Shown here piece by piece: positions 12,616 through 28,165 of a stretch of 64,000 nt of DNA. This DNA is from Nodularia sp. LEGE 06071 (lineage in GTDB: Bacteria; Cyanobacteriota; Cyanobacteriia; Cyanobacteriales; Nostocaceae). The translations under genes were made by a program, and so were the position numbers. Numbering within the stretch: position 1 is the first letter of the stretch; every line of letters starts with the position of its first letter. The notes below the pieces were generated by a model. That model made no database searches. It was given only the letters and a program-made list of their open reading frames with translations, and was not told the DNA's origin. The stretch is from assembly GCF_015207755.1 (NCBI RefSeq), contig NZ_JADEWH010000022.1, positions 1-64,000 of the forward strand, written 5' to 3'.

Positions 12616-12744
12616 AAGCAATGAAAAATTAAAGATCAAAAACCTGTAAATTTATCCAAACTAACTCTATCTGCGGTTTTGAGACAGGCTAGCAAGGAAG
12701 AGAGGAATTTTCATTACAGCAGTTTTTAATTAATTAGACCACAG

Positions 12745-12774
12745 TGTAGAGACGTTGCATACAAAGTCTCTACA
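12745..12774. repeat. Dispersed hairpin TGTAGAGAC...GTCTCTACA
   Basis: This is a perfect 9-bp inverted repeat with a 12-nt loop between the oligopeptidase and hmpE genes. It resembles the common GTAGAGACG-type palindromes of Nostocales and could form a transcript hairpin upstream of the oligopeptidase. Confidence 0.55.
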
Positions 12775-12851
12775 GGGTTTTAATTGCTGTTTTGTGTTTA
12801 ATTTACCGGAAAATAGCTGTCAGCGGCAATTTTTAGCCCATGTCTAACAGC

Positions 12852-15800
12852 TTAAGAATTTCTCAGTTTTTCGCCTGACAGCATCCGCACTGCGGCTTCG
12901 AGTAAAACTTCTTCGATATAGGGTTTGGTAAAGTAGCCACTAGCACCGAGTTGAAATGCCATTTGACGGTGTTTGTCTGCACCCCGTGAGGTGAGCATGG
13001 CTATAGGAACCTGACTCAGATCAGCATCTTTTTGGATACGGGAGAGTAATTCCAGTCCGTCGCAGCGAGGCATATCGATGTCACAAAATACGATATCGCA
13101 AGGTAGACCTGAACGGAGTTTCTCCCAAGCTTCCTGTCCATCTCGCGCCTGTTCAACGCGATAACCAGCTTTGATAAATGTCAGTGAGAGTAACTCCCTA
13201 ACTGTGATTGAGTCATCGACAATCAGCACTGTGGGATCAATTTTTTCTACCGTAGTTTCTGGCAGGATTGGCTCTCCTTGTTGCTGCCAAAGTTTACTAC
13301 CATTGTGTTTAGAAATCCGTCCTTGGAAGATTTCAATAATTTCTAGTACATCAGCGATGGGCATAATCCGACCATCACCTAAGATAGTAGCACCGGCTAC
13401 ACCAATGGGTTTGGGTGCTGGACTTTCAAATTGCTTAATCACAATTTCTTGCTCACTCAGCACCAGGTCAATTTGTAGAGCAATCATGGTATTTCCCGAT
13501 CGCACTACCACGACTGAGACCATATCATCATCTCGGTTACCACCATAAACATTACCGCGACTCAGCAGACGATTAAAAGTTAAAAGTTCTTTCAACGGTC
13601 GGAAAGGCAGTAATGTATCGCGCCAAGCAATATATGATTGTCCATCGGCGTGATGCTGAATACTACTTACGGGTATATCTAGGGTATCTTCCACCCCGTC
13701 CATCGGAAAGGCAATCCGCGCTTTATCGGAGACACAGCAGAGAGCTTTGCAAATACTCAAGGTCAATGGTAAACGAATAGTAAAGGTAGTTCCTTCACCA
13801 ATAGTCGAATTTGTGTAGACTATGCCGCGAATTTCGCTAATTTCCGAACGCACTGCATCCATTCCTATACCACGGCCGGCAATCTCATCTGCTTTGTCTT
13901 TGATACTAAAACCAGGTTGAAATAGCAGGTCATACACTTCCATTGATGAAACGGATTTTGCTTGAACTGCTGTCATCATGCCCAATTGAACTGCTTTTGC
14001 CTTGATCCGTTCTGGATCGATCCCAGCACCGTCATCACCCACAGAAATCACTGTTTGATTACCTTGGTAGAAGGCACGAATCGTAATGTATCCTACGGGT
14101 GGTTTACCAGCATTTTGCCTGATATCTGGCGTTTCAATCCCGTGCGCGATCGCATTGTTGAGCATATGAGTCAACGGGCTGATCAGATGATCTAAAATCA
14201 TCTTGTCAATTAAGGTATCTCCCCCTTCAATCACCAAATTTACTTGTTTCCCATACTTGATGGCGTTGTCGCGTACTCCTCGGCGCAAGCGATCAATCGT
14301 TTGGGAAAAAGGCACCATTCGCGCTCGTGTGAGTCCCTCTTGTAGCTGGGTTGTCACTTGTCGGAACTGTCGCGCTACTCTTTCGGTTTTTTCAGTCACA
14401 AAGTCAATGTCACTCGCTGACTCACGCACCCGCACAATAAATTCAATCGTTTCTTGGGATAGTCTATGGAAAGGAGTGAACTGATCGATTTGTAACTCAC
14501 TAAAGCCCATGTTTTTATGGGAATTATCACTGTTCAAGTTCGTTTCTTCAGGTGATTTCGTTTTGCGACTGGCCAGAAGAGAAGCTTCCAATAGCGATCG
14601 CTCATACAATTCTTCCATCCTTGCTCCCACATCCGACAGATGTTGCACCTGAATGAGCAAGTTATCTAAAGATTGCCGTAGCCGTTCATGATCCTGTTCT
14701 AAGGTATTGCGGTTTACCACCAACTCCCCTACTAAATTGCTCATCTCGTCCAGTTGCTTAACTGGCAACTTCATTGTTTCTTCAAATCTGGCAGTCCGAC
14801 GTTCTGAAGAACGGGAGATTTGGCTCGTGTGCGGTTTTGGTTTTGCCGATGATGAATGGGATATAGTTTGATCGGCTTCTGCAAGCAAGTCCTCCAATTC
14901 GCTAAAATCATCATCCCGATCCGATGATGCAATTGTGTAACTGGTAGCTTGGTTAGTAGTTAGTTCAAATTGTGGTACGTAGGATGGCTGGTCATCAGAT
15001 AAAGTTACCTCTTGGTCATCTAAGTTGCTGGTATTCAGCAAAGCTTCCAGAACAGCAAAATCTTCTTCTGCCATCGAATTAGCATGGGAACTTAATGCTG
15101 CTTCCTCTTCTAATTCTAATAAAGCTTCTAAATGAGCAAATTCATCTTGGATATAAGTATTAGAATCATGTTCTGGAGTAGCTTCTTCTGGGTAATTTAA
15201 TGTTGTCTCTTCCTCTTCAGGCAAAACAAAATTAGCATTTTCACTCTGGGCTAATTGTGTGTCTAGGGATATGGAATCTGTGTTCAACAGATCATCTAAT
15301 AAATCGGCTGTCTCCTCAAATATTTCCTCACCAGATTCCAGATTCAAGTCGTCTTCGCTGTCATCCCAGAATGCTACTGAACTATCTTCAATACTATTTA
15401 CTAATAATTCTCCTTGATTGACTGTTGGCTGCTCAGTTTCTGTGGCTAATAAATCATCAACTAAATCAGTTGCTTCCCTAATATCAACATCATCCGGCAA
15501 ACTAGAATTAACATTGATATCTACAAATTCTAATTCAGGTTGAAACTCTTGTAAGTCTACATTTTCGGGATAACTTATATCTAAATTTGTTTCTGAAGCT
15601 AATAATTCCTGATCATCAACAAGACTATCGGCATGATCCATTTGCAGATATGTTGAATTATCGGCAGTGGCTATTTCTTCAAAGACGATTTGCGGATGCT
15701 CATCGAGACTATCAAACAAATCAACTTCAAAATCAGCCAATCCTGGCGGAGAATCTACAGCAGCTGTTTTTGGTGGCTCTTGTGTAAATTCTGGGATGAA

Positions 15801-18059
15801 ATCTAATGCTTCTGGCTCTTGGGAGAAGCCGCTAATTTCCTGTAGAGTCAACTCCTGATCTTCGTCATCGCTAAAAAATATGGAATTGGATGCGGCTAAA
15901 TCTGCAAATAAATCATCTTCAACACCAGTATCTGATGGTAATATTAAATTCTGGTTCGGGAAATCAATACTTGTTGAGGGCGAGGGTACAGACTCTTCCC
16001 TATTGCCAAAAATATCATCAGAAGCAGCCGCAAATAAACTTTCCTCTAAAGCTTTTGCCACATCTTGCTCAACAAACCGAACAGCTTCCTCTTGTTCTTC
16101 TGTTGTTGTTTCCTGATGCCAAAAGTCGTTTAAATCGTCTTCTTCCTGAATAAATTCTGTTGCTGCTGTGGTTGATATGTCAAATAAATCAGTAATATCC
16201 GACTCATCACTAGACAGTTGTGGAGTATCTTGAATATTATCAAAATCATCAAACAAACCATCTAAACTTAAAGATTCTGGCTGGAGTATAGTCGGTTTGG
16301 CTTCTATATATTCATCCACTGAAATCTCTTCTATATCTGCATCATTTTTTTCTAAGAATAAGTCGTCAAAACTGCTGGGTTGGTTAATGGATATTTGTTC
16401 TGGTTGACTTATTTGGCCTGTAGGCACTAATTCATTTTCATCGAGTGTTGGTGCTAATAAATCACCGATTAAATCATTACTATGATGATCACCAGCAGAT
16501 TGCTCTGATTCGCTGTTAATTGCCACATATTTTGGTTGATTTTGCAGGGATGGATGCTCTGTTTCCGCGAAATTTTCCCCAAATAATAGGTTTAATTCTT
16601 CTGATGTAGTTAGATTGATTTGCAGATCATCATCGTTTTTCTCTTCATCAAAGTATAGAAAATCAGCTAAATCGTGATCAACATCTTCAATATCGCTGTC
16701 ACTGATATCTATTCCTAATTCACTGGTGGAGGTAATGTCCAAATATTCCTCTTGTTGCCAGGTTTGATCTAGTTCGGAAGTTTCACCGTCAAATAAATCA
16801 GCCAGAGTATTTAACTCAGCTAATCCTACGAATGGGCCATTTTGACTAATGTTGCTATTGTCTGTATCTTCTTGATTATCCAAGAAGAAATTAGAAGTCA
16901 TAGAAGTTTCAGGGACAGTGTTTTCTGTTGCGGCTGAAGTATCTTGACTCGGTTGAAGTTGCTCGGATAGTTCAGTGAGGCTATTTATCTTGTCTGTTGG
17001 CTGTAAAGTAGTAGGCTCACTAAAGTTATCTGTAGTCGAAAACAATTCCTCATCTACTCTCCGTTTTGGCTGGTCAGCAAACAAATCTTGAGACCGTAAC
17101 AACTCAAGTTCTGACAAGTTCAATAGCGCGGTTAATTGCTGACAAGTTACAATCTCGGTTTCTCTGTCTTGGAGAACTAATTCTTGGGCTTTTTTGATTT
17201 CGGTAATGACAATTTTAGCTAGGGTGAGATAGGTATTTTCAGGATTAGCGATCGCACTTGCAGCTGCTTGACATAATCTACACCAATGAGGCAAATGCCA
17301 CCTCTGCCCAAGTCTGACTAACTGCTGACAGCATTGCTGAAGATTGTTCCGAGATTCGGGTGTTGTTTTGTTTTTAAACAGTTGCAACATTTCCCGCAGT
17401 GCTTGTAACACCTGGGCTTGAAATTCATCCCCATAGTCACTGGCTTGGGCGGGTAAGAGCGAATGTGCTTCTGAAAATACTACAGATCCGGTTGATTCTG
17501 TCGATGTACTTTCGGTGTCTTCTTCCAAATTGGGAATATCTCGTCGCAGGAACAGATCCGTAAGTGTGTTAACACTGTCCTGCCGATTTGGTTCTACTTC
17601 TGTTGTGAGATTGTTCTGAACTACCCCACTGCTTTGTTGTACAAGCAGTTCTAGATGCTCATACAGCCATTGAAAGACCGGCTCAGTTTCTAACATCAAA
17701 GTATTAGCAGTATCTTCCGAGAGACCAAATGGCCCACTCAAATGTTCTAACAGCACCTTGAGGGTATCAGTGACACCGAGAAATAAAGATTCTAACTTTT
17801 GGTCAACCTGAACCGGATGTTCTTTAAGAACTTTAAAACAATCTTCCAGACGGTGGGACGTGTGCTGAATGCTATTCAGCCCCAGCATAGCCGCGCTTCC
17901 CTTGATCGAGTGAGCCGCCCGGAAAACTTCGTTTACCATTTCCGGGTCGTTCAAGGTACTTTGGAGATTCATTAACCCCTGCTCAATCGTATCGAGATAC
18001 TCTCCTGCTTCTTTGATGAAGAAACCTAAAATCCGCTGTTGTTGTTGTTCCGGCAGCAT
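12852..18059 (-). CDS. hmpE: CheA-type hybrid histidine kinase of the hormogonium motility system
   Basis: HmpE is the kinase of the pilus-linked chemosensory pathway. Domains in order are an N-terminal Hpt domain with phospho-His50 (AAHSIKGSAAML), a second helical region around 200-310, and a very long acidic linker (about 320-1070). Then come the dimerisation helices (from about 1095), the HATPase with N-box NNAIAHGIE near 1300 and GDDGAGID, a CheW-like domain (about 1440-1580), and a C-terminal receiver (from about 1610) with CDIDMPRCDG and Lys in YFTKPY. At 1735 aa it is long for CheA because of the linker. It is the last gene of hmpABCDE, separated from hmpD by a heptamer repeat. The locus order supports the name. 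Confidence 0.93.
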   Translation of the reverse strand: MLPEQQQQRILGFFIKEAGEYLDTIEQGLMNLQSTLNDPEMVNEVFRAAHSIKGSAAMLGLNSIQHTSHRLEDCFKVLKEHPVQVDQKLESLFLGVTDTLKVLLEHLSGPFGLSEDTANTLMLETEPVFQWLYEHLELLVQQSSGVVQNNLTTEVEPNRQDSVNTLTDLFLRRDIPNLEEDTESTSTESTGSVVFSEAHSLLPAQASDYGDEFQAQVLQALREMLQLFKNKTTPESRNNLQQCCQQLVRLGQRWHLPHWCRLCQAAASAIANPENTYLTLAKIVITEIKKAQELVLQDRETEIVTCQQLTALLNLSELELLRSQDLFADQPKRRVDEELFSTTDNFSEPTTLQPTDKINSLTELSEQLQPSQDTSAATENTVPETSMTSNFFLDNQEDTDNSNISQNGPFVGLAELNTLADLFDGETSELDQTWQQEEYLDITSTSELGIDISDSDIEDVDHDLADFLYFDEEKNDDDLQINLTTSEELNLLFGENFAETEHPSLQNQPKYVAINSESEQSAGDHHSNDLIGDLLAPTLDENELVPTGQISQPEQISINQPSSFDDLFLEKNDADIEEISVDEYIEAKPTILQPESLSLDGLFDDFDNIQDTPQLSSDESDITDLFDISTTAATEFIQEEDDLNDFWHQETTTEEQEEAVRFVEQDVAKALEESLFAAASDDIFGNREESVPSPSTSIDFPNQNLILPSDTGVEDDLFADLAASNSIFFSDDEDQELTLQEISGFSQEPEALDFIPEFTQEPPKTAAVDSPPGLADFEVDLFDSLDEHPQIVFEEIATADNSTYLQMDHADSLVDDQELLASETNLDISYPENVDLQEFQPELEFVDINVNSSLPDDVDIREATDLVDDLLATETEQPTVNQGELLVNSIEDSSVAFWDDSEDDLNLESGEEIFEETADLLDDLLNTDSISLDTQLAQSENANFVLPEEEETTLNYPEEATPEHDSNTYIQDEFAHLEALLELEEEAALSSHANSMAEEDFAVLEALLNTSNLDDQEVTLSDDQPSYVPQFELTTNQATSYTIASSDRDDDFSELEDLLAEADQTISHSSSAKPKPHTSQISRSSERRTARFEETMKLPVKQLDEMSNLVGELVVNRNTLEQDHERLRQSLDNLLIQVQHLSDVGARMEELYERSLLEASLLASRKTKSPEETNLNSDNSHKNMGFSELQIDQFTPFHRLSQETIEFIVRVRESASDIDFVTEKTERVARQFRQVTTQLQEGLTRARMVPFSQTIDRLRRGVRDNAIKYGKQVNLVIEGGDTLIDKMILDHLISPLTHMLNNAIAHGIETPDIRQNAGKPPVGYITIRAFYQGNQTVISVGDDGAGIDPERIKAKAVQLGMMTAVQAKSVSSMEVYDLLFQPGFSIKDKADEIAGRGIGMDAVRSEISEIRGIVYTNSTIGEGTTFTIRLPLTLSICKALCCVSDKARIAFPMDGVEDTLDIPVSSIQHHADGQSYIAWRDTLLPFRPLKELLTFNRLLSRGNVYGGNRDDDMVSVVVVRSGNTMIALQIDLVLSEQEIVIKQFESPAPKPIGVAGATILGDGRIMPIADVLEIIEIFQGRISKHNGSKLWQQQGEPILPETTVEKIDPTVLIVDDSITVRELLSLTFIKAGYRVEQARDGQEAWEKLRSGLPCDIVFCDIDMPRCDGLELLSRIQKDADLSQVPIAMLTSRGADKHRQMAFQLGASGYFTKPYIEEVLLEAAVRMLSGEKLRNS

Positions 18060-18066
18060 AGCAAAA

Positions 18067-18120
18067 GTTATGAGTTGTGAGTTATGAGTTGTGAGTTATG
18101 AGTTGTGAGTTATGAGTTGT
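18067..18120. repeat. Heptanucleotide tandem repeat between hmpD and hmpE
   Basis: Seven complete units alternate GTTATGA and GTTGTGA, followed by a partial unit. The period is exactly 7 bp, as in cyanobacterial short tandemly repeated repetitive (STRR) sequences. It lies just upstream of the hmpE start on the transcribed strand of the operon. Confidence 0.9.
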
Positions 18121-18170
18121 AATTGGTAATTTTTTTGATTTACTCCTAACTCCAGACTCCTAACTTTGAT

Positions 18171-21146
18171 TTACTTGGAATCCATGGTTTCCACGCGGAA
18201 ACGCTCTACGGAGGCAATCAAGTCGCCAGAAACACCTACTAAAATTTGTAGAGACCCAGAAACGCGCTGGGCTTCCTGGGAGGTTTCTTGGGCTGTGAGT
18301 TCCACCGATTGCATCACGTGCGCGACGGCACGAGAAGTTTCGGTTTGTTCTGCTGTGTCGCTGGTAATTGAGCGCACCAGAGTGTCAATGCGATTGGCTA
18401 CTTGAATAATATTTTCTAGCGATCGCTTGGCTTCTTGTGCCAATTCTGTGCCTTTAATTACCTGTTCTGTGCCTTCAGACATGGCGGTCATTACCAAGCC
18501 TGTTTCGCTCTGGATTTGCATAACAATCTGTTCAATTTCCTTTAAGGATTTGGCAGATTTGTCTGCTAGCTGACGCACTTCATCTGCCACAATGGCAAAC
18601 CCACGTCCAGCTTCACCAGCTCTGGCTGCCTCAATACTGGCATTGAGTGCTAGCAAGTTAGTCCGGGAGGCAATCTGAGAAATTATCGCCACAATTTTAG
18701 AAATTTCTTGGGAAGATTCGGCTAATCGTTTTACCTTGCGGGTAGTTTCCGCTACAGTTTCACGAATTTCTAAAATCCCCGCCACAGTATTTTCCACTGC
18801 TTCTCCACCTTTGAGAGCGATCGCACTGGCATCACCAGCCACAATTTCTGCTTCTCGCGCCGCTTCCGCTACCCTTTGAATGGAGTCAGTCATCACCTGT
18901 ACCGAATTTAAAGTGACACCTAACTCTTCGGCTTGACGCAAAGCATCACTAGATAAGGCTCTAGCAAATGTTTCGGAGTTGGTTGCACCTTTTGTTACTT
19001 CCTTTGCTGCCACTTTTACTTGTTGGACAATATCCCGGAGGTTTTGAATTGTCAGGTTAAAAGCATCCGCCACGGCTCCTAGTACGTCGGCTGTGACTTC
19101 AGCTTGGACTGTCAAATCACCTCTAGCTGCACCTTCCACGTCGTCCAACAGGCGAATGACTTGGCGTTGCAAGTTTTCCTTGGCTTCTTCTTGTTCCAGA
19201 GCTTTGCGTTGGGCATCATGTGTAGTTGTAAAAATTACACGAGCCATGTCATTAAAAGCAGTAGCCAAACGCCCTAATTCATCTTCGGAATACACCGTGG
19301 CTTGCACATTCAAATTACCTTGGCGGACTGCATCAAACTGAGCTTGCAGATCCTTGGTGGTGCGGCGAATTTGCTTGAGTGTCAGATTACCCATAAAGGC
19401 TGCTGTACCGAAACCAGCAATACCCGCAGCTAATGACATCGCCCAGCCTGTATTCCTGACTGATTCCCGTTGTGCAGGTGGAGAAAAGTTGGTAGTTGTG
19501 AAGCTAACTGTAGCTACAACTAAGGCTGAGAAAACGCCCACTGTACCAGCGACGAACCAGGGCTTCACATCTAGAGAGGCATTCTCTAAAGGTGCTAGCC
19601 AGCCTTGCTCCACGTTGACGTTTGGTGCTAGCTTCGAGCCATCTGTTTCGGTAAACATTGGATCTACTTCTTGTGCGCCATTCTGTGAGCCTGTGATGGA
19701 AAACAGTTCATCGTCGCGATTCTTTTCAGTGCGATCGTGACGCGAACGGATTTCACTAGCTTCATTTTTGGCTTGAGATCCCTTGTCTTTACTTTGTCGG
19801 TTAGCACTAGTATTTAATGAACCCGAAAGCATGGTCACATCATCAAAGCTAGAATCGGCTTCTGCTAAGTCAAATCCAGGAATATTCCCTAAATCATCAA
19901 ATTCATCAAAGTCATCTAAAAACTCTATATTGCTCTGAGAATTTTCACCCCTTAGTAAACTACTTGTATCTTCCTCAGCCCCAAAGGCAGATTTAAATGC
20001 CTCAAAATCATCAAAACCATCATCACTATCAAAATTAGTTAGCTCTGCCTCTGAATCAGTTGTAATCTCCGGATCTGTTGGTGAATATCTCCCATTCAAG
20101 CTTGAGGATGATGTCGATAATTCTTCTTCAACCTCTATTTGATCCAAGTAATTGCTATCTCCCAACTGCGGAAAATCATCTAGAGAATTATTACTCAAAT
20201 CATTCAGTTCTGTTGAACCATCTTGGAGATTCTCCTGATCCATCAGTAAGTTCTCTGTTTCCTGGATATTTATCGGCAGGTCAAAATTCTCCAGATTTGG
20301 CTCTTTTTCCGCCTCTTCAGTCAAAAGATTAGGAGTATTTCCTAAACTATTGCTTGTGGAAAAGTCAACTTCTGAAAAAGCTCTATCATCTACATTTTCA
20401 TCATAAACTAGGGAAAATTCCAGAGAATCATCCATAGCAACCTCTGATAAGTTACTGCTAGTTTCGGGCTGATCTACACTTTCTGCGACATTCTCTTCTT
20501 CCCAGAAAACGGGTAAATCTAACGCTACTTCCTCGTCTCCCGTATTGGCATGAGATTCTTTGCCGTTTTGATTTTCATTAAAAGCAAAAGGCTCTTCACT
20601 AAAAGGTGAAGTTAAATCTGGCGTTTGATTAAATGAAATAGTCTCTACAGGGATCTCAAATGGATTGAGCGAGGATAAGTCTTCTACATCTACTGATGGT
20701 GGAAGCTCTTCCAAGGAATTCAATTCAAAGCTGTGGCTATCTATGTTGGCAAACACCTCAAAATCATCAAATTCTGGGGGATCAGATACCAAGTCATCAG
20801 AAATTTCACAGAAATTTTCTGGCTCTTGCTGATGATTTTCTCCAAGACCAATGTCTGAATTTAGTGCTGCTTGCTCTTGATTGATGTTTTCTAAACCATT
20901 ATTGGCAAAACCAATAATTTCTCGATCATCAGACAACTGCAAAACTTTTTGGTACTCTGTTTTTGCCACATCGTACTGCTGCAATACGTAGTAGATATGA
21001 CCACGTAATAAATGGCAGTTAGGGTCATCTGGTACGTTTTGCACCACTTCGTCTACTAAAGTGGCGGCAACTTCATACTTTTGTTGTGCATAGGCTGTAC
21101 AAGCCTGCTTATATGAATCTAAATAATCGTTTAAACTAGCTGCCAT
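18171..21146 (-). CDS. hmpD: Methyl-accepting chemotaxis protein of the hormogonium motility system
   Basis: HmpD is the MCP receptor feeding HmpE. I place the start at 21146 (MAASLNDYL), preceded by GGGAGAG; the upstream in-frame codons belong to hmpC. Residues 1-90 look like two TPR-type helical hairpins ([20 protein letters not shown]). A long acidic Asn/Asp/Glu linker runs to about 520. Two TM helices follow (about 528-551 and 560-585) with almost no periplasmic loop. Then come HAMP-like repeats and the MCP signalling tip [20 protein letters not shown] near 830. The lack of a periplasmic ligand domain suggests sensing inside the cell or in the membrane. It sits between hmpC and hmpE. Confidence 0.93.
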
Positions 21147-21162
21147 TTGCTCTCTCCCAATT

Positions 21163-21693
21163 TCATCCTGCCCACCTCGCACTCCGCAAAATTGCCATTT
21201 GATCAAGCAGTCTTAAGCACTGTTTATGATCAGCATTTCTTAACCACTCTCCACGCAAAAACGGAGTCATCGAATCCGGTAAATTACTTGGTGGCATTAA
21301 ATCCTGGATATCCAGCCAGTCCATACCACCAATTTTTTCTACTGCTAAGCCTACGATAGTGTCTTGTTCTTCAATAGCAATCACCGGAATTTCGGCTCTA
21401 TCTGTATTCAATGGGGTTGCTTCACCCAGGAATTGACCCAAATCAGCCACCCAAATCACTCGACCTCGTAAATTTAGAGTACCCAAAAGTAAAGGAGAAG
21501 CATTAGGAATTGGGGTAATTCGATCAGGACTTAGTTCCATAACCTCTTGGATACCAGTGGCAGGTAGTGCAAACTCCAGATCCGAGGCAATATAAAACCG
21601 TAAATGTAATTCACCTTCAGGACTTTCTACTTGTAATTCTGGCCGAAACTGATCTTGACCACTACCACTTAAAAAGTCAGGTTTGCTCACCAT
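21163..21693 (-). CDS. hmpC: CheW-type coupling protein of the hormogonium motility system
   Basis: HmpC is the adaptor that docks the MCP (HmpD) to the kinase (HmpE). It carries one CheW domain, about residues 28-170, with [16 protein letters not shown], the loop [20 protein letters not shown] and [14 protein letters not shown]. The 176-aa length is normal. Its start at 21693 lies 17 nt inside the end of hmpB, so the two genes are translationally coupled. A truncated, nonsense-bearing copy of this gene lies at 22301-22673. Confidence 0.94.
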
Positions 21694-22066
21694 GTCGTTT
21701 TAATCCTCCCAGCAATTGTTTGACTGTTCCCACCAATTCGGTTGGTTGAAACGGTTTGGCTATGTAAGCATCCGCACCTTGCTTGATACCCCAGTAGCGG
21801 TCAAATTCTTCACCTTTAGAAGAACACATGACCACGGGGACGTTTTGGGTTTTCGGGTTGGATTTGAGGCGACGACACACTTCATAGCCGTTCATCCGGG
21901 GCAACACAATATCCAATACGACTAAATCAGGAGGGGCCATCTGAATTGCCTCTAATGCTTCTACTCCGTCAAGGGCATGGGTGACTATTAAACCACTTGC
22001 TTTCAGGAGGTCTGTAATCATCTCCCGTTGTGCGATACTGTCTTCCACAATCAGCACTGTACTCAT
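21677..22066 (-). CDS. hmpB: CheY-type response regulator of the hormogonium motility system
   Basis: This is a stand-alone receiver domain (129 aa). The acidic pocket (VEDS at 8-11), the phospho-Asp in VVLDIVLPRMNG (Asp52) and the conserved Lys in YIAKPFQP are all present. It receives phosphoryl groups from HmpE. It overlaps hmpC by 17 nt and follows hmpA in operon order. A second copy at 22642-23046 differs at about 18 of 129 positions, so this is one half of a tandem duplication. I assign the hmpB name to this copy because it is directly coupled to an intact hmpC. Confidence 0.92.
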   Translation of the reverse strand: MSTVLIVEDSIAQREMITDLLKASGLIVTHALDGVEALEAIQMAPPDLVVLDIVLPRMNGYEVCRRLKSNPKTQNVPVVMCSSKGEEFDRYWGIKQGADAYIAKPFQPTELVGTVKQLLGGLKRHGEQT

Positions 22067-22239
22067 AAATGCCTATCTCCTGATGTCAACGTTCCTGGTT
22101 GGAACATTCCCTGATCCCCCGAAAATATTTAGTGTATAAATTAATTTTATTGTTTCACTAATGTACTAGATAATAACCTGGTATTTGAGTTAAATGATTC
22201 GGTGATCACATTTTTAACCGAAGATTTTCTGGCATCAGT

Positions 22240-22300
22240 AAGTATTGCATATTGTTAGTGTTCCCAGATCAGGCGGGACGTTAATCTATTTTTTACCACG
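22240..22300 (-). pseudogene. Remnant of the hmpA 3' end
   Basis: This stretch aligns with the last codons and 3' flank of hmpA at 23214-23280: both contain GTGTTCCCAGAT, then a G/A-rich tract and TNTATTTTT-CCACG in the same order on the plus strand. It is the far edge of the duplicated block and encodes nothing on its own. Its junction with the truncated cheW copy is at about 22300. Confidence 0.7.
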
Positions 22301-22673
22301 CAATACCAGCAATGGCTTCTACTGCTAAATCTAGGATGGTGTCTTGTGATTCAATAGTAATCACCGCAATTTTGGCTCTATCGGTGTTTAATGCGGTTGC
22401 TTCACCCAGGAATTTACCCACATCAGCCACCTAAATGACTCGACCTCGTAAATTTAGAGTACCCAAAACTAGAGGAGAAGCATTAGGGATGGGAGTGATT
22501 CTATGAAAACTTAATGCTATGACCTCGCGGATACCATTGGTGGGTAGTGCAAACTCGTGATGTCAGGGAATATAAAACCGCAGATGTAATTGATCTTCAG
22601 GACTTTCTGTTTGTAATGCTGTCCGAAAGTGATCTTGACCACTACCACTTAAATACTCCGGTTTGCTCACCAT
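22301..22673 (-). pseudogene. Truncated cheW (hmpC) copy with two nonsense codons
   Basis: The block is colinear with hmpC (21320-21693) without visible indels. Reading from the ATG at 22673, codon 37 is TGA (22565-22563) where hmpC has Ser37, and codon 81 is TAG (22433-22431) where hmpC has Trp81. The C-terminal third of the gene is missing because the copy ends at about 22300 in an hmpA-like remnant. It therefore cannot make a CheW protein. It sits directly after the second cheY copy, as hmpC follows hmpB. Confidence 0.9.
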
Positions 22674-23046
22674 ATCGTTTTGATTCTCGCAGCAGTTTTT
22701 TGACTGTTCCCACCAATTCGGTTGGTTGAAAGGGTTTGGCTATGTAAGCATCCGCACCTTGCTTTGTACCCCAGTAGCGGTCAAATTCTTTATTTTTAGA
22801 AGAACACATGACCACGGGGACGTTTTGGGTGGTCGGGTTGGATTTGAGCCGACGACAAAGTTCATAGCCGTTCATCCGGGGCATCACAATATCCAATACG
22901 ACTAAATCAGGAGGGGAAGTTTGAATTACCTCCAATGCTTCTACTCCGTCATGGGCATGGGTGACTATCAAACCACTTGCTTCCAGAAGGTCTGTAATCA
23001 TCTCCAGTTGTGCGATGCTGTCTTCCACAATCAGAACTATACTCAT
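22642..23046 (-). CDS. Second CheY-type response regulator, duplicate of hmpB
   Basis: The receiver fold is intact (134 aa) with VEDS, phospho-acceptor Asp52 in VVLDIVMPRMNG and Lys in YIAKPFQP. It differs from hmpB at about 18 of 129 aligned residues, and several changes reverse charge on the last helix (QLLGGLKRH to KLLRESKRY). The original stop codon is lost, so translation adds GVFKW and runs 32 nt into the dead cheW copy. The upstream 160 bp is also duplicated, including the sequence before the start. Purifying selection looks likely because the frame is kept while its cheW partner has decayed. It could act as a phosphate sink or alternative output. Confidence 0.85.
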   Translation of the reverse strand: MSIVLIVEDSIAQLEMITDLLEASGLIVTHAHDGVEALEVIQTSPPDLVVLDIVMPRMNGYELCRRLKSNPTTQNVPVVMCSSKNKEFDRYWGTKQGADAYIAKPFQPTELVGTVKKLLRESKRYGEQTGVFKW

Positions 23047-23213
23047 AAATGCCTATCTCCTGATATCAACGTTCCTGGTTGCAACATTCCCTGATCTCCT
23101 GAAAATTTTTAGTGTATAAATTAATTTTATTGTTCACTAATGTACTAGATAATAACCTGGTACTTGAGTCAGATGATTCTGCAATAATATCTTTTCTCCT
23201 TAATTTTATGGTG

Positions 23214-24437
23214 TCATTTAGTATTAAACTTTGTGTGTGTTCCCAGATAAGAGGGAAGGTTGATGTATTTTTCCACGAGCATGAGTAGCTCAGTATCCCC
23301 AAAGGGCTTGGTTAAATAATCCGTGGCTCCGACCATCGTCGCCCTGACTCGATCTATAAATCGATCTTTACCAGTTAGCATGATGATCGGGATATTTTGA
23401 AATGCGGTAGAGTGCCGCAGCATGGCACAAATTTCGTAACCATCCAATTCCGGCATAGCAATGTCACATAAAATTAAATCTGGTTGGACTTGAAAAATTA
23501 CACTGATGGACTCTAAGGGCTTGTTCAAGGCGATCGCTTGATATCCCTGTGGCTTTAAGATTGACTCTACAGCTTCACAGATAGTTTTGCTATCGTCAAT
23601 ACATACTACTCGTACCTGGTAATTGTCATCGAATCCTGACTCTTCTCTGTGTGTCGGGGAATTATGAGGAGTTGAGTATACTAGTTGCAGCCAACCCTGC
23701 TGCACGTATGGATAGATGGCCTTGGCCACTGTCAAAATATCTCGGTTGAGATGGCGAGCCAGTTGACGCAGGGTTCTTTTACCATCGGCCCAATGCTTGA
23801 GCTTGTTGATTGTTGCTGCTGGCAGTGAAGATTCTAGTTGCACCAGATCAGCTAGGATTGGTAATTGTTCAGAAGACTGAATATGTGGATAAAGCTGTTT
23901 CCATGTCTGGATTTGCTGTGTAATTCTGTATATTAAAGGGGCAATTTCTAAGCTGGTTAATTGCGGGCTAAGGGTCGCACCGTGGCGAAAAATGAAACTC
24001 CCCTGGTGTAAACTCAGCAGATCAAAAAGTGTCTCATACACCAAACTGTGGATAATACTATGCCCTACCTTGGGGACAATGATGTTTCGTTCTATCAATG
24101 CCCAGAGATAGCCATACTCTGGTGCATTCTCTGTACCTAGTGAAGCAAGTTGCTGTTCATTGAGTCTTGTCTCGATGCGGTAATGATGTAAGTAATCATC
24201 AATCCGCGACAAATCAGTATCACCTTGTTGACAGTAGATAATTTGACCGTTGAGGAAGAAGACGAACCAAAACTTTTGTTCACGCTTCCAGGAATGGTGA
24301 TGTCTGGCTGTCTCGTGATTTGTGAGTTTGTCGCTATTGTGAAAGCAGGCTTCCACCAAAAGTTGCCCAGTTCGCTGTCCTACTTCAATCAATTGCAGGA
24401 TACTGCGAATATCAATTTCATTTAAATTTCCCTGCAT
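23214..24437 (-). CDS. hmpA: PatA-like response regulator of the hormogonium motility system
   Basis: This is a two-part protein of 407 aa. The N-terminal PATAN/DUF4388-like domain begins MQGNLNEIDIRSILQLIEVG and runs with a helical middle section to about 260. A C-terminal receiver (about 272-395) has VCIDDSKTI, phospho-Asp in LILCDIAMPELDGYE and Lys in YLTKPFGD. PatA-family regulators act in heterocyst patterning, and HmpA heads the hmp operon in Nostoc punctiforme. Here it is the first minus-strand gene, divergent from hmpF, and its last codons are duplicated at 22240-22300. Output is probably by protein-protein contact, since no DNA-binding domain is present. Confidence 0.9.
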   Translation of the reverse strand: MQGNLNEIDIRSILQLIEVGQRTGQLLVEACFHNSDKLTNHETARHHHSWKREQKFWFVFFLNGQIIYCQQGDTDLSRIDDYLHHYRIETRLNEQQLASLGTENAPEYGYLWALIERNIIVPKVGHSIIHSLVYETLFDLLSLHQGSFIFRHGATLSPQLTSLEIAPLIYRITQQIQTWKQLYPHIQSSEQLPILADLVQLESSLPAATINKLKHWADGKRTLRQLARHLNRDILTVAKAIYPYVQQGWLQLVYSTPHNSPTHREESGFDDNYQVRVVCIDDSKTICEAVESILKPQGYQAIALNKPLESISVIFQVQPDLILCDIAMPELDGYEICAMLRHSTAFQNIPIIMLTGKDRFIDRVRATMVGATDYLTKPFGDTELLMLVEKYINLPSYLGTHTKFNTK

Positions 24438-24839
24438 TTAGCTTGAAGGCTCTCCTGAAGATTCCATTGACGTTCTCTGTTAATTTTGCTCATTCCAGGT
24501 TCTACGTTTTTAGCAGATGAATCAGGTACTATTACTCACAATATTATTTCCTTTACAACTAGTCTCAATCAGAGGCTACATTTAGCTACAAATTGTAAAC
24601 TTTTGTAATATATTTTGGTAAACCTAGTAATAACACGGAAGTCATGATCACTGCCATCAGGACAAAATATAAAGGCATAACTAAATTGTTTTTATAAATA
24701 TCAAGACGTTTATCTTACGTCTATAAATAGTTTTGTCTGTGTTTATTTCGGAAAGTTAGGTAAAATTAAGACGAATTAGCAGTATTATCTCAGGTATATC
24801 CCCCAAGAAGGACATCAAGTACACAAGAGGACAAACGGT
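24438..24839. promoter_or_regulatory. Divergent promoter region between hmpA and hmpF
   Basis: The 402-bp gap separates the hmpA operon from hmpF and contains no gene. It is AT-rich. Hormogonium genes are controlled by a sigma factor cascade that includes SigJ, but I cannot place a specific box with confidence. Upstream of hmpF the ribosome binding site is AGAGG at 24826-24830. Confidence 0.5.
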
Positions 24840-26573
24840 GTGCTGTATTTAGCAGAAGTACAAAAGCAGAAAGGCGGCTTACTCGGTGGTGGAGCTAAAA
24901 CCGAACTGAAACTGCTAGCGTGTCAGCGAACCGACCAGAATTGGAGTACTGTGTCGGAAGAAGCAATTAGTGCTGAGGACGCTAGTAGATTAAATGATGG
25001 CGCATTGGTACTGGTGGAATTGAATCCGAATCGTCAAGTGCAGAGGATTCAAGAAGCTGGAAGACCATTGGTTAACATTTTGCAAAATTTTTCCCGTCAG
25101 TTGGAAAAATTTAAGCTCAAGGAAGATGAAATTGATCAGTGGAAAGAGTCACTAACATTTCAGGCGCAAGAGATGAATCGCCGGGAAATGGATATGGAGG
25201 CTCGTTTAGAACAGTTGCAACAAATGGAGGAAGAGTTTCAACGTCTGGAGTCAGAGAAGCAGGAAGTAGAGACCACCCGCGAGCTGGTTTCACAGTTACA
25301 GACAGAACTTGAACGTAAGCGTCAGGAATTAGAGGGAGCTTGGGAACATTTGCGGGGTGAGCGCCGCCGCCTAGAGGAATCTCAAGCAGATACTCTACCG
25401 GGGAAGGTTCTAGATGAGGAACAAAGTCGGGTGATGAACGAGTTACTGGAGCGCTTGTCTAATAGAGTTGCACCCACGGAAACTGTCAGTGAACACCTGA
25501 ATTTAGCTTTGGAATTAGTCGAAAGCCAGCAAGCTACTTTAAACCCACATTGGGAAAAACTAGAGCAGCAAAGAACTGTAGCGACTGAGCAGCAAGAAGA
25601 AATTGAGCGTTTAGCACAAACTTTGAGCGATCGCCAAAACGCATGGCAACAGGCACGCGATTTTCTGGAACAAGAAAAAGCTCAATTAAAAGTGAACACT
25701 GCAACTCTGTCTAGTAAGCAAGATTATCTTCAAGTCATCAAGGAACAGTTGCAAAATCAGGATCTGCTACATCAGCAAATTCGCTCTTTGGCGGCAACTT
25801 ATGGTGATTCAGGACTGAGCCAACAAGTTGATGTAGAAGCTTTGGAAAAAATTTCTTTAGAAGAACTACAACAGGTAATACAAGACTTGAGGCATAAGTT
25901 GGAAATGGATTCTAGCTTTGTCCACGATCAGGAGCAAGAACTGACATATAAACAAGAAACTATAGAAAAACTGCAAAATCAAATCAAGGAAGCCGCCAAG
26001 CCAGAGCAAATCAATTTGGAAATGGAACTTGCGGATGAACAAGACCTCTACCAGATGTTAAACGAAAGTCTGGTAGGGCAACGCCGTAATTTGGTACAAC
26101 GGCAAAAGTTGATTAAGCAGCATGAGAATATACTTTTGCGACGACAAGGACATCCGGTTACCAATACAGAAGAAAATAACCACATTGACTTGAGTCCGAT
26201 TTTGTTACAGATCAAATCCCAGCAACAAGAACAGTCGCAAGAACTACAAAAGTTAGAACATGAGATTTCGCAAATGCTTGCGGCTATTGAAATATCTCAA
26301 GGAATGATTGAGAATCAAACCCAAGAGCAAGGAGAAAAGCAGCTGGAATGCCAGGAGATCGAAACAAGTTTGCTATCCCTGCGAACAGCAACCTCTGAAT
26401 GTTGGGCGCGTGTGAATCTTTATCAGGAGGCATTACAACCAATTCAGGACGCTCTCGACGGATTACGCCATAAGCTGCAAGGAATTGCTGAGTCTTTGGC
26501 TCAAGTTCAAGAAACTGGTGACTATCATCTCCAAACGATTAATGAAATGCGTGACTTCGTAGAGACTCGATAA
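24840..26573 (+). CDS. hmpF: Pilus motility taxis protein HmpF
   Basis: HmpF is a cyanobacterial coiled-coil protein needed for type IV pilus motility and its polar localisation in hormogonia. The N-terminal 75 residues (LYLAEVQKQKGGLLGGG, then TELKLLACQR) are the conserved head. Nearly everything from residue 80 to 560 is long coiled coil rich in Glu, Gln and Lys. The start is GTG at 24840, 9 nt after AGAGG, and matches the expected MLYLAEV N terminus. The gene is divergent from hmpA, the same arrangement as in Nostoc punctiforme. The 577-aa length is normal for the family. Confidence 0.92.
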   Translation: MLYLAEVQKQKGGLLGGGAKTELKLLACQRTDQNWSTVSEEAISAEDASRLNDGALVLVELNPNRQVQRIQEAGRPLVNILQNFSRQLEKFKLKEDEIDQWKESLTFQAQEMNRREMDMEARLEQLQQMEEEFQRLESEKQEVETTRELVSQLQTELERKRQELEGAWEHLRGERRRLEESQADTLPGKVLDEEQSRVMNELLERLSNRVAPTETVSEHLNLALELVESQQATLNPHWEKLEQQRTVATEQQEEIERLAQTLSDRQNAWQQARDFLEQEKAQLKVNTATLSSKQDYLQVIKEQLQNQDLLHQQIRSLAATYGDSGLSQQVDVEALEKISLEELQQVIQDLRHKLEMDSSFVHDQEQELTYKQETIEKLQNQIKEAAKPEQINLEMELADEQDLYQMLNESLVGQRRNLVQRQKLIKQHENILLRRQGHPVTNTEENNHIDLSPILLQIKSQQQEQSQELQKLEHEISQMLAAIEISQGMIENQTQEQGEKQLECQEIETSLLSLRTATSECWARVNLYQEALQPIQDALDGLRHKLQGIAESLAQVQETGDYHLQTINEMRDFVETR

Positions 26574-26739
26574 TCGCTGCTCTACAAGAGATTTAGGAGT
26601 GTGTCAAAAAAGAGGAAAGGGAGCAAGGGGACAGGGGAGAAGACCCCAGACATAAATGTAGGTAGGGGCGGGAAACAAGGACGCTTATTTCTTGTGCAAA
26701 GCATCTCGGAATAAATATTTTTCCCTGATTGCTGGGAAG

Positions 26740-27774
26740 TTACAAGTCCCCCCTGCACCCTGCACCCTGCCCCCCTGCCTCTTCGGTCACACAGATGCAA
26801 TCGCCTTGAACTTGGGCGATCGCACCACCAGGAAATGGATCGGTTTGTGAACGGTTTGGCGCTGTAATTAAAGCTGTTAATTTTTCAATGTGTTCAAAAC
26901 TCGGTGCGTCAGTCAGGATCTGTTGTAATATCTGTCGCATCACGCGACGTTGCAGCGCTAGTGGTACTGTCTGTAATATCCGACGATTTAACCTCAATTC
27001 AGCGCCATTTCCCCTGATCCCCATTTCTTCTGAAAGCTGCACTTCCTCTCGCAATTTATGGGCTGCTTGCTCTAAATATTCTACTTCGGCTTGCAGCAGT
27101 TCTGCTGTTTGGGCTAAGGCGGATTCTACTTTGGGGTTAAAATTTCTTTGTAAATATGGGATTAACTCTTGGCGAATGCGATTACGGGCATATTTGACAT
27201 CTTGATTGGTGGAATCTTCCCAAACTGGGAGATGAAACTCTTGACAAAATTGCTCTGTTTCTAGGCGAGTAATTTCTAATAATGGACGGATTAAGAAAAT
27301 ATCGGCAGTTAGTGGCCTTTGCCAAGTTAGTGCTTGTAACCCATCAGCACCAGTCCCACGCATGAGGTTGTAAAGCAGAGTTTCGGCGCGATCGCTTGCG
27401 GTATGTCCGGTAACTATATACTGGTAATTATTCCCTTGAGCGATCGCAGTTAAAGCTTCATACCGCCAACTACGTGCCGCAGCTTCACTATTTAATGGCT
27501 GTGTTGCTGTTTCTAAATAAAAAGATACACCCCAACTTTTAGCTAATTTCTCCACATGATTAGCATTAGCTTCAGAATCGTTACGCCAACGATGATCACA
27601 GTGAGCGATACCTAAATACCATCCCCATTTAGGTTCTAAATCTAACAGTAATTTAATTAAACACAGAGAATCTTGACCACCAGAAACTGCGACTAATAGC
27701 CTTTGATTGCGCTCAAATAAGTGGCGCGAACGAATGGTACGATGTATTTTCGCGTGTAAAGCAGTCCATACCAT
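26740..27774 (-). CDS. tilS: tRNA(Ile)-lysidine synthetase
   Basis: TilS modifies cytidine-34 of the tRNA-Ile CAU anticodon to lysidine, which is essential for AUA decoding. The N-terminal PP-loop ATPase motif is VAVSGGQDSLCLIKLLL (about residues 28-44), with CDHRWR and VTGHTASDRAETLLYNL further on. The C-terminal domain is short, giving the 344-aa cyanobacterial type rather than the longer E. coli form. The last 11 residues come from a heptamer repeat and are unlikely to be conserved. It is convergent with hmpF. Confidence 0.93.
   Translation of the reverse strand: MVWTALHAKIHRTIRSRHLFERNQRLLVAVSGGQDSLCLIKLLLDLEPKWGWYLGIAHCDHRWRNDSEANANHVEKLAKSWGVSFYLETATQPLNSEAAARSWRYEALTAIAQGNNYQYIVTGHTASDRAETLLYNLMRGTGADGLQALTWQRPLTADIFLIRPLLEITRLETEQFCQEFHLPVWEDSTNQDVKYARNRIRQELIPYLQRNFNPKVESALAQTAELLQAEVEYLEQAAHKLREEVQLSEEMGIRGNGAELRLNRRILQTVPLALQRRVMRQILQQILTDAPSFEHIEKLTALITAPNRSQTDPFPGGAIAQVQGDCICVTEEAGGQGAGCRGDL
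26751..26779. repeat. CCCTGCA/CCCTGCC heptamer repeat inside the tilS 3' end
   Basis: Consecutive 7-bp units CCCTGCA, CCCTGCA, CCCTGCC and a spaced CCCTGCC lie at the end of tilS on the opposite strand. They encode the terminal residues GGQGAGCRGDL of TilS. This is an STRR-type sequence. Confidence 0.8.
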
Positions 27775-27850
27775 TTTTGTTATTTAACCACAGACAAACC
27801 TAGCTAATTTTTATTATACCAGTGTGTATTTGCAGTTAAAGATTGATCAG

Positions 27851-28165
27851 CTATTCTTGGCTTTGCATTTGTTCAAAATGTTGATAAATTTGCTCCAATG
27901 GAAATTCAGGCTCATCAGGACAAAATTCTAGAGAAAGTCTTACTTTTCCTTTCGTCCAGCCCTCGGCACTAAATTTTAAAACTTCACAATTTAATCCTTG
28001 GCTGTACAAACTTTCTTCAGTTGTCCCTTCGGCTCCCAGATATTTTTTAATTGCTGAGATCAAATCATGAACTTTAAATGTTCCTGAAACATCTAAATTA
28101 TGAAAAATCTCTGGTTCTACATACACAACTTCATCATGATTTAATCGCTCAAATCCATTTTCCAT
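27851..28165 (-). CDS. KGK family protein (104 aa), copy 1
   Basis: The protein matches the cyanobacterial KGK family (named after its KGK motif), visible here as GWTKGKVRLSLEFCPDEP near residue 70. The N terminus, FERLNHDEVVYVEPEIFHNL, is the other conserved block. It is soluble and of unknown function. A paralogue of 102 aa lies at 32997-33305 with the same two blocks. The two copies bracket the cassette at 28668-32911. A Shine-Dalgarno-like AGGAG sits just before the ATG (28170-28174). Confidence 0.85.
   Translation of the reverse strand: MENGFERLNHDEVVYVEPEIFHNLDVSGTFKVHDLISAIKKYLGAEGTTEESLYSQGLNCEVLKFSAEGWTKGKVRLSLEFCPDEPEFPLEQIYQHFEQMQSQE

What the first reader, a model, noticed from the sequence alone, without database searches (positions are those of the whole stretch)
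22240..23285. Tandem duplication inside the hmp chemosensory operon, with a dead CheW copy
A block holding the hmpA 3' end, the cheY gene and two-thirds of the cheW gene occurs twice in direct tandem. The cheW copy has TGA at codon 37 and TAG at codon 81, no visible indel, and lacks its C terminus; the block edges lie in hmpA and in hmpC. This shows an ongoing gene duplication in a well-known motility operon, caught while one partner decays. The age relative to close relatives would show whether it is lineage-specific.
Basis: seen in the sequence. Interest (0 to 1): 0.72.

Follow-up and report, generated by a model that had tools for sequence, protein, structure and literature searches.

The report
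Old tandem duplication in motility operon
A 1-kb piece of a cyanobacterial motility-control operon was copied in tandem before two sister species split; the copied adaptor gene was cut short at birth and has decayed, while the copied switch gene is still intact, so this is a tidy but ordinary example of how gene copies live or die.

Summary
A 980-bp unit (hmpA end, spacer, hmpB/cheY, first ~125 codons of hmpC/cheW) stands twice head to tail (21316-22295, 22296-23275), 88% identical over 837 ungapped bases; TGA37 and TAG81 are real. It is not an artefact: a second, single-contig species of the genus has the same junction and the same TAG81. The other three congeners examined have one hmpB, as do 80 of 80 named loci in the stretch held.

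The interpretation needs changing. The hmpC copy lost its last third in the duplication itself and evolves as a pseudogene (dN/dS 1.05). The event is not recent. The hmpB copy is intact in both species; its dN/dS is 0.45 against 0.05 in single-copy relatives, and its changes favour residues tolerated by orthologues. Gene conversion, concentrated on hmpB, also kept the copies alike. Purifying selection on it is supported on the full tree but not in subset tests. Its function (a second CheY competing for HmpE phosphate) is inferred. Ordinary in kind, with a neat internal control.

The parts
23214..24437 (-). hmpA, DUF4388 (PATAN-like) + receiver domain (407 aa); its last ~20 codons are the start of the duplicated unit
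   Evidence: ORF; Pfam DUF4388 and Response_reg; equating DUF4388 with PATAN is recalled
22296..23275 (-). Copy 1 (promoter-proximal) of the duplicated unit, about 980 bp
   Evidence: alignments
23047..23213 (-). hmpA-hmpB spacer and hmpB leader, copy 1
   Evidence: alignments
22642..23046 (-). hmpB2: intact CheY-like receiver, 134 aa (ancestral stop at codon 122 lost)
   Evidence: ORF, Response_reg E 1.5e-29, orthologue lengths
22293..22673 (-). hmpC': truncated, dead cheW copy; TGA37 at 22563-22565, TAG81 at 22431-22433
22290..22300 (-). Duplication junction, hmpC codon ~125 / hmpA codon ~387; short shared TGG
   Evidence: same junction in G003 (L097)
22235..22294 (-). Relic of the hmpA 3' tail that begins copy 2
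21316..22295 (-). Copy 2 of the unit (contains the canonical genes)
22067..22234 (-). Spacer and hmpB leader, copy 2
21677..22066 (-). hmpB1: canonical CheY-like receiver, 129 aa (ancestral stop lost)
21163..21693 (-). hmpC: intact CheW, 176 aa
18171..21146 (-). hmpD: methyl-accepting chemotaxis-like protein
   Evidence: ORF (start taken at the ATG of MAASLNDYL, not at the listed TTG); name by synteny, no domain search run
12852..18059 (-). hmpE: CheA-like kinase with a receiver-like C terminus (read from the translation)
   Evidence: ORF; name by synteny with the table in PMC10581220, no domain search run
24840..26573 (+). hmpF: coiled-coil protein, divergent neighbour
   Evidence: ORF; name by synteny

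Best explanation
Once, most likely in the common ancestor of this species and its sister, an illegitimate joining event linked hmpC codon ~125 to hmpA codon ~387 and duplicated about 980 bp in tandem (shown: structure, shared junction, shared stop; the joining mechanism is inferred). The operon became hmpA - hmpB2 - hmpC' - [hmpA tail] - hmpB1 - hmpC - hmpD - hmpE. Every original gene stayed whole, and one hmpB and one C-terminally truncated hmpC were added. hmpC' had no useful product and drifted neutrally: TAG81 arose before the species split and TGA37 later in this lineage (shown). hmpB2 has stayed an intact receiver in both species, under weakened but probably real protein-level constraint, helped by gene conversion with hmpB1 (partly shown). 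The likely function is a second CheY in the Hmp type IV pilus system: it takes phosphate from HmpE in competition with HmpA and HmpB1, so acting as a dosage or phosphate-sink change, with a possibly altered output at the loop 83-86 (inferred, about 0.4).
For: Same two-copy structure, junction and TAG81 in G003, a single-contig genome. G000 and G003 are sisters, ultrafast bootstrap 100; the two hmpC' are sisters, 97. Single hmpB in G001, G002, G004, in 80 of 80 named loci over the stretch held and in 5 of 5 loci from other genera of the family, one of which (L101) looks like the same record as L016. dN/dS: hmpC' 1.05 (test of =1: p 0.87), hmpB2 0.454 (p 0.010), single-copy background 0.03-0.05. 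Five-class model: G000 hmpB2 tip 0.29 (p 0.015), G003 hmpB2 tip 0.47 (p 0.058). hmpB2 lower than hmpC': p 0.043, from a coarse 7-point grid, so slightly optimistic; chance that neither hmpB2 gained a stop under neutrality 0.037 with hmpC'-derived branch lengths. hmpB2 changes are residues seen in 80 orthologues in 0.42 (of 12, G000) and 0.45 (of 20, G003) of cases against 0.13 expected (P 0.012, 0.0005); hmpC' 0.36/0.35 against 0.27 (P 0.20, 0.19; 79 orthologues). E8, D9, D52, S82 and K104 kept in both. Conversion: genome-type sites 5 of 10 in hmpB against 1 of 29 outside (paralogue- plus genome-type sites; the one cross-type site left out; Fisher p 0.0023), and a 4-nt deletion in both G000 copies that none of the other five congener sequences has.
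Against: Relaxation of hmpB2 is itself strong (differs from one common ratio, p 8e-6), and selection on it is not significant in subsets: conversion tract removed 0.54 (p 0.11); G003 alone 0.60 (p 0.22); G000 alone 0.87 (p 0.80). With hmpB's own, shorter branch lengths the stop-free chance is 0.088, not 0.037. The five-class model put the stem at its upper bound (20), so the few changes right after duplication look like replacements. hmpC' of G003 also shows a mild bias to variable sites (mean conservation P 0.021; invariant-site share P 0.068), so the residue test is not perfectly clean. Gene conversion alone could explain part of the intactness. The hmpB gene tree does not recover the two hmpB2 as sisters. 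The shared 4-nt deletion could be parallel: L045 lacks four bases at about the same place with different resulting letters. The canonical hmpB1 and hmpC are also somewhat relaxed (0.17 against 0.05, p 0.019; 0.10 against 0.03, p 0.0495). No expression or protein data. Five and nine changes at nearly invariant sites in the two hmpB2 proteins could mean slow death.
Confidence: 0.75

Rival explanations
1. hmpB2 is also a pseudogene that has not yet been hit: time since duplication is short for a 121-codon gene, and gene conversion from hmpB1 repairs it. Both copied genes are then functionless.
For: dN/dS about nine-fold over background and not significantly below 1 in the single-genome tests; stop-free chance 0.088 with hmpB's own branch lengths; conversion-type sites concentrated in hmpB; changes at 97%-invariant sites (5 of 12 in G000, 9 of 20 in G003).
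Against: Stop-free chance 0.037 with hmpC'-derived branch lengths; tolerated-residue bias P 0.012 and 0.0005, not seen in hmpC' of the same block (P 0.20 and 0.19); full-tree test p 0.010.
Confidence: 0.36
2. One reading: a recent, ongoing duplication in which a whole cheW copy is being lost.
For: Two stops without a frameshift look like early decay.
Against: Shared by two species with the same TAG81; copies about 12% different; the copy lacks codons ~125-176 because the breakpoint is there, and the hmpA tail follows directly.
Confidence: 0.04
3. Assembly artefact (falsely repeated sequence).
For: The window genome is a 54-contig draft.
Against: The copies differ at about 12% of sites, and another, single-contig genome has the same junction.
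Confidence: 0.01
4. The duplication is older (before the genus radiated) and was lost by recombination between the repeats in the ancestors of G001/G002 and G004.
For: Recombination between tandem copies restores one copy without a scar; gene trees place the copies only weakly (support 34-64 on the key branches).
Against: Needs extra losses; the species tree makes one gain on the G000+G003 stem simplest.
Confidence: 0.15

Closest known systems
hmp locus of Nostoc punctiforme (hmpA-E, Npun_F5960-F5964, with hmpF Npun_R5959; gene table passage in PMC10581220)
   Same: Same gene order; domain searches run for hmpA, both hmpB and hmpC agree.
   Different: Here a second hmpB and a truncated hmpC stand between hmpA and hmpB1; 80 of 80 named loci from other cyanobacteria have a single hmpB in the stretch held.
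Pix system of Synechocystis (PixG PATAN-receiver and PixH CheY, described as antagonistic in the review PMC12288463; passages seen)
   Same: Would work like it: one kinase serving a PATAN-type receiver and a CheY-like receiver.
   Different: Here there would be two CheY-like receivers besides the PATAN-type one; antagonism in Hmp was not shown in anything I saw.
Tandem segmental duplication followed by pseudogenisation and gene conversion (general phenomenon, recalled)
   Same: The structural and evolutionary signs found here.
   Different: Nothing in kind; the block holds an internal neutral control of the same age.

Membership tests
hmp chemotaxis-like operon | Order hmpA-hmpB-hmpC-hmpD-hmpE with divergent hmpF | tested here: met
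   ORFs; hmpA-hmpB-hmpC-hmpD order in the four other congeners; one extra hmpB and a relic hmpC inserted here and in G003
CheY-like receiver (hmpB2) | Response_reg domain over the full length | tested here: met
   Pfam PF00072, residues 4-115, E 1.5e-29
CheY-like receiver (hmpB2) | Acidic pair, phospho-Asp, Thr/Ser and Lys of the active site | tested here: met
   E8, D9, D52, S82, K104 unchanged in G000 and G003 hmpB2; residue roles recalled from CheY
CheY-like receiver (hmpB2) | Phosphorylated by the cognate CheA (HmpE) | not testable with these tools
   needs biochemistry
Pseudogene (hmpC') | Disabling lesions | tested here: met
   TGA37, TAG81, codons ~125-176 absent
Pseudogene (hmpC') | Neutral evolution (dN/dS = 1) | tested here: met
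   1.05, p 0.87 for departure from 1
Pseudogene (hmpB2) | Neutral evolution (dN/dS = 1) | tested here: inconclusive
   0.454, p 0.010 on the full tree, but 0.54, 0.60 and 0.87, none significant, in three subset tests
Tandem duplication | Head-to-tail copies with one novel junction, flanks unrepeated | tested here: met

The most novel reading that the evidence does not exclude
hmpB2 is a working third response regulator of the Hmp system in this two-species clade. Its divergence in both species touches the loop just after the switch residue S82 (positions 83-86: SSKGEEF to SSKNKEF and SGNSQEF), so it may have gained a different partner or dephosphorylation rate and altered the tuning of pilus polarity.
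Probability: 0.25. Interest if true: 0.5.

Novelty: new member of a known kind. Interest (0 to 1): 0.28.

Why it matters
Two genes copied in the same event sit side by side. One was truncated at birth and gives a neutral yardstick; the other was copied whole and is still intact in two species. Such a built-in control allows retention of a signalling paralogue to be tested without guessing the age or mutation rate. If hmpB2 works, it shows the pilus chemosensory circuit tolerating a third receiver.

Tried and rejected
Assembly artefact: rejected, because G003 (one contig) shares the junction and TAG81. Independent duplications: rejected, because of the same junction and 33 paralogue-type against 6 genome-type and 1 cross-type sites in the homologous block.

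Import of the loop 83-86 from another receiver in the genome by ectopic conversion: considered. The next best receivers in the five congeners are 46-48% identical to G003 hmpB2; no donor was identified, and I did not align the loop itself against them.

hmpC' as a retained short peptide: considered, because G003 keeps an ATG and an open frame to TAG81 and its two indels are multiples of three. Rejected, because dN/dS of codons 1-80 is 1.01 and G000 has TGA37.

Rfam search of 12000-28000 only, at E<=1: one weak hit, SL1 at 26718-26826 minus, 32 bits against a gathering score of 75, E 0.025, taken as chance. Literature: no report of an hmpB duplication among the titles and abstract starts listed by four searches of the open library, which misses most subscription papers; the founding hmp paper (Risser, Chew, Meeks 2014) was seen only as a reference entry. 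Passages only were seen of PMC6495340, PMC10581220 and PMC12288463. The species, genus and strain of the window were not determined.

Limits of the survey: (217 family genomes, own genome included; 208 with a match) two candidates per genome were scored and the row list was cut, so it alone does not exclude diverged second copies. In one search a copy counted at 45% identity or more; some loci were cut by contig ends (no hmpC in L080), and hmpA was not detected at the threshold used in 6 of 80 (L060, L062, L063, L078, L084, L088). For the leader analysis I aligned 43 of the 54 upstream sequences; the other 11, including G003 copy 1, were left out to save space.

Full report
What is there. The operon lies on the minus strand: hmpA 24437-23214, then an extra cheY 23046-22642, a broken cheW, the canonical cheY 22066-21677, cheW 21693-21163, hmpD and hmpE, with hmpF divergent at 24840. 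Pfam gives DUF4388 plus receiver for hmpA, a receiver for both cheY genes, and CheW for the canonical cheW; hmpD, hmpE and hmpF were not searched. The names hmpA-F follow the gene table for Nostoc punctiforme in PMC10581220 (passages seen).

The repeat. Self-alignment gives 837 ungapped bases at 88.3% and a more diverged spacer end. With relatives aligned, the unit runs from hmpA codon ~387 to hmpC codon ~125, about 980 bp per copy, and the junction is near 22293-22297. Both parents carry a TGG at the break; this is too short for ordinary homologous recombination, so illegitimate joining is inferred.

Who has it. Of the five genomes of the genus that were searched, this one and G003 have two copies, and G001, G002 and G004 have one. 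G003 is a single contig. A single hmpB was found in 80 of 80 named loci over the stretch held and in 5 of 5 loci from other genera of the family, one of them probably a duplicate record. The tree of hmpA+hmpC+hmpD puts G000 and G003 as sisters with ultrafast bootstrap 100; they are 90.5% identical there. The junction and TAG81 are shared, and the two hmpC' are sisters with 97. One event in the common ancestor of the two species is the simplest history; an older origin with losses is not excluded.

The dead copy. The copy of cheW lost codons ~125-176 in the event itself, since the hmpA tail follows directly. dN/dS on its branches is 1.05 (codons 1-80: 1.01; codons 82-124: 1.11), none different from 1. 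It was stillborn. G003 adds two in-frame deletions, and G000 adds TGA37.

The living copy. hmpB2 is open in both species. dN/dS is 0.454 on its branches against 0.048 in single-copy relatives and 0.168 in hmpB1 of the two species. The departure from 1 has p 0.010, and the departure from one common ratio has p 8e-6, so constraint is clearly weakened. In a five-class model the tips are 0.29 (G000, test of 1: p 0.015) and 0.47 (G003, p 0.058), with the short stem at the upper bound of 20. hmpB2 against hmpC' has p 0.043 on a coarse grid; the neutral chance of no stop in both lineages is 0.037 with hmpC'-derived branch lengths and 0.088 with hmpB's own. The evidence weakens in subsets: without the conversion tract 0.54 (p 0.11), G003 alone 0.60 (p 0.22), G000 alone 0.87 (p 0.80). 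Another test looks at which residues changed: 42% (of 12) and 45% (of 20) of hmpB2 changes are residues that some of 80 orthologues also use, against 13% expected (P 0.012 and 0.0005), while hmpC' shows no such bias (36% of 28 and 35% of 31, 27% expected, P 0.20 and 0.19, 79 orthologues). Against a perfectly clean control, hmpC' of G003 does favour less conserved sites by mean conservation (P 0.021). G004 was used as the ancestral state, so a few changes such as V63L and H32N may be ancestral. Active-site residues are kept (roles recalled).

Gene conversion. In the homologous block, sites where the two copies agree within a genome but differ between species are 6, five of them in hmpB; sites that group by copy are 33, of which 5 are in hmpB; one further site is of cross type and is left out of the test (Fisher p 0.0023). 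Six genome-type against one cross-type site gives p 0.06 on its own. Both G000 copies also share a 4-nt deletion in the leader that the other five congener sequences lack; among the 47 named leaders, L045 lacks four bases at about the same place with different resulting letters, so a deletion-prone spot is possible. The hmpB tree accordingly groups the two G000 copies (support 75) rather than the two hmpB2.

How it may work. Type IV pilus chemosensory systems with two response regulators are described in PMC12288463 (passages): PixG with a PATAN domain, and PixH, a CheY-like antagonist. HmpA and HmpB have the same kind of architecture. A second HmpB would add a receiver for HmpE phosphate: a dosage or sink effect, or, given the changes at 83-86 in both species, a changed output. 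This is inference; no expression, biochemical or genetic data were seen here.

Verdict. Observation confirmed; interpretation partly supported. An ordinary kind of event with an unusually clean internal control. On re-checking, the stop-free chance of 0.088, the mild bias in G003 hmpC' and the L045 deletion were added, and the odds were moved slightly for them (best explanation 0.78 to 0.75, pseudogene rival 0.33 to 0.36, novel reading 0.27 to 0.25).

Noticed in passing
window 22067-22180 and 23047-23160 (minus strand); L015-L061 upstream of hmpB: The leader of hmpB is conserved in most of the 54 upstream sequences compared: an AATTTATACA block, then GGGAATGTTCC-loop-GGAACGT and CTAC-AUCAGGAG-GUAG with the ribosome-binding site in the loop. 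In 43 sequences hairpin 1 pairs in 96.7% and hairpin 2 in 85.3% of cells, but covariation is weak (whole structure: 3 cells with double changes against 1.6 shuffled, and slid controls reach 1-6). It may be an RNA leader, an internal promoter or a protein site; no Rfam family matched it at E<=1.
   Followed up: partly
window 21677-21703 and 22642-22683: Both hmpB copies of this species lost the ancestral stop at codon 122 by different changes and now run to 129 and 134 aa; 78 of 80 orthologues are 121 aa, the others 122 and 123.
   Followed up: partly
L097 5961-5981 (G003 hmpB2 codons 82-88): Clustered substitutions change four consecutive, otherwise nearly invariant residues (83-86) in G003 hmpB2; G000 hmpB2 changes two of the same residues.
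   Followed up: partly
window 18066-18134: About four head-to-tail copies, the last imperfect, of a 14-base repeat (AGTTATGAGTTGTG) between hmpE and hmpD.
   Followed up: no
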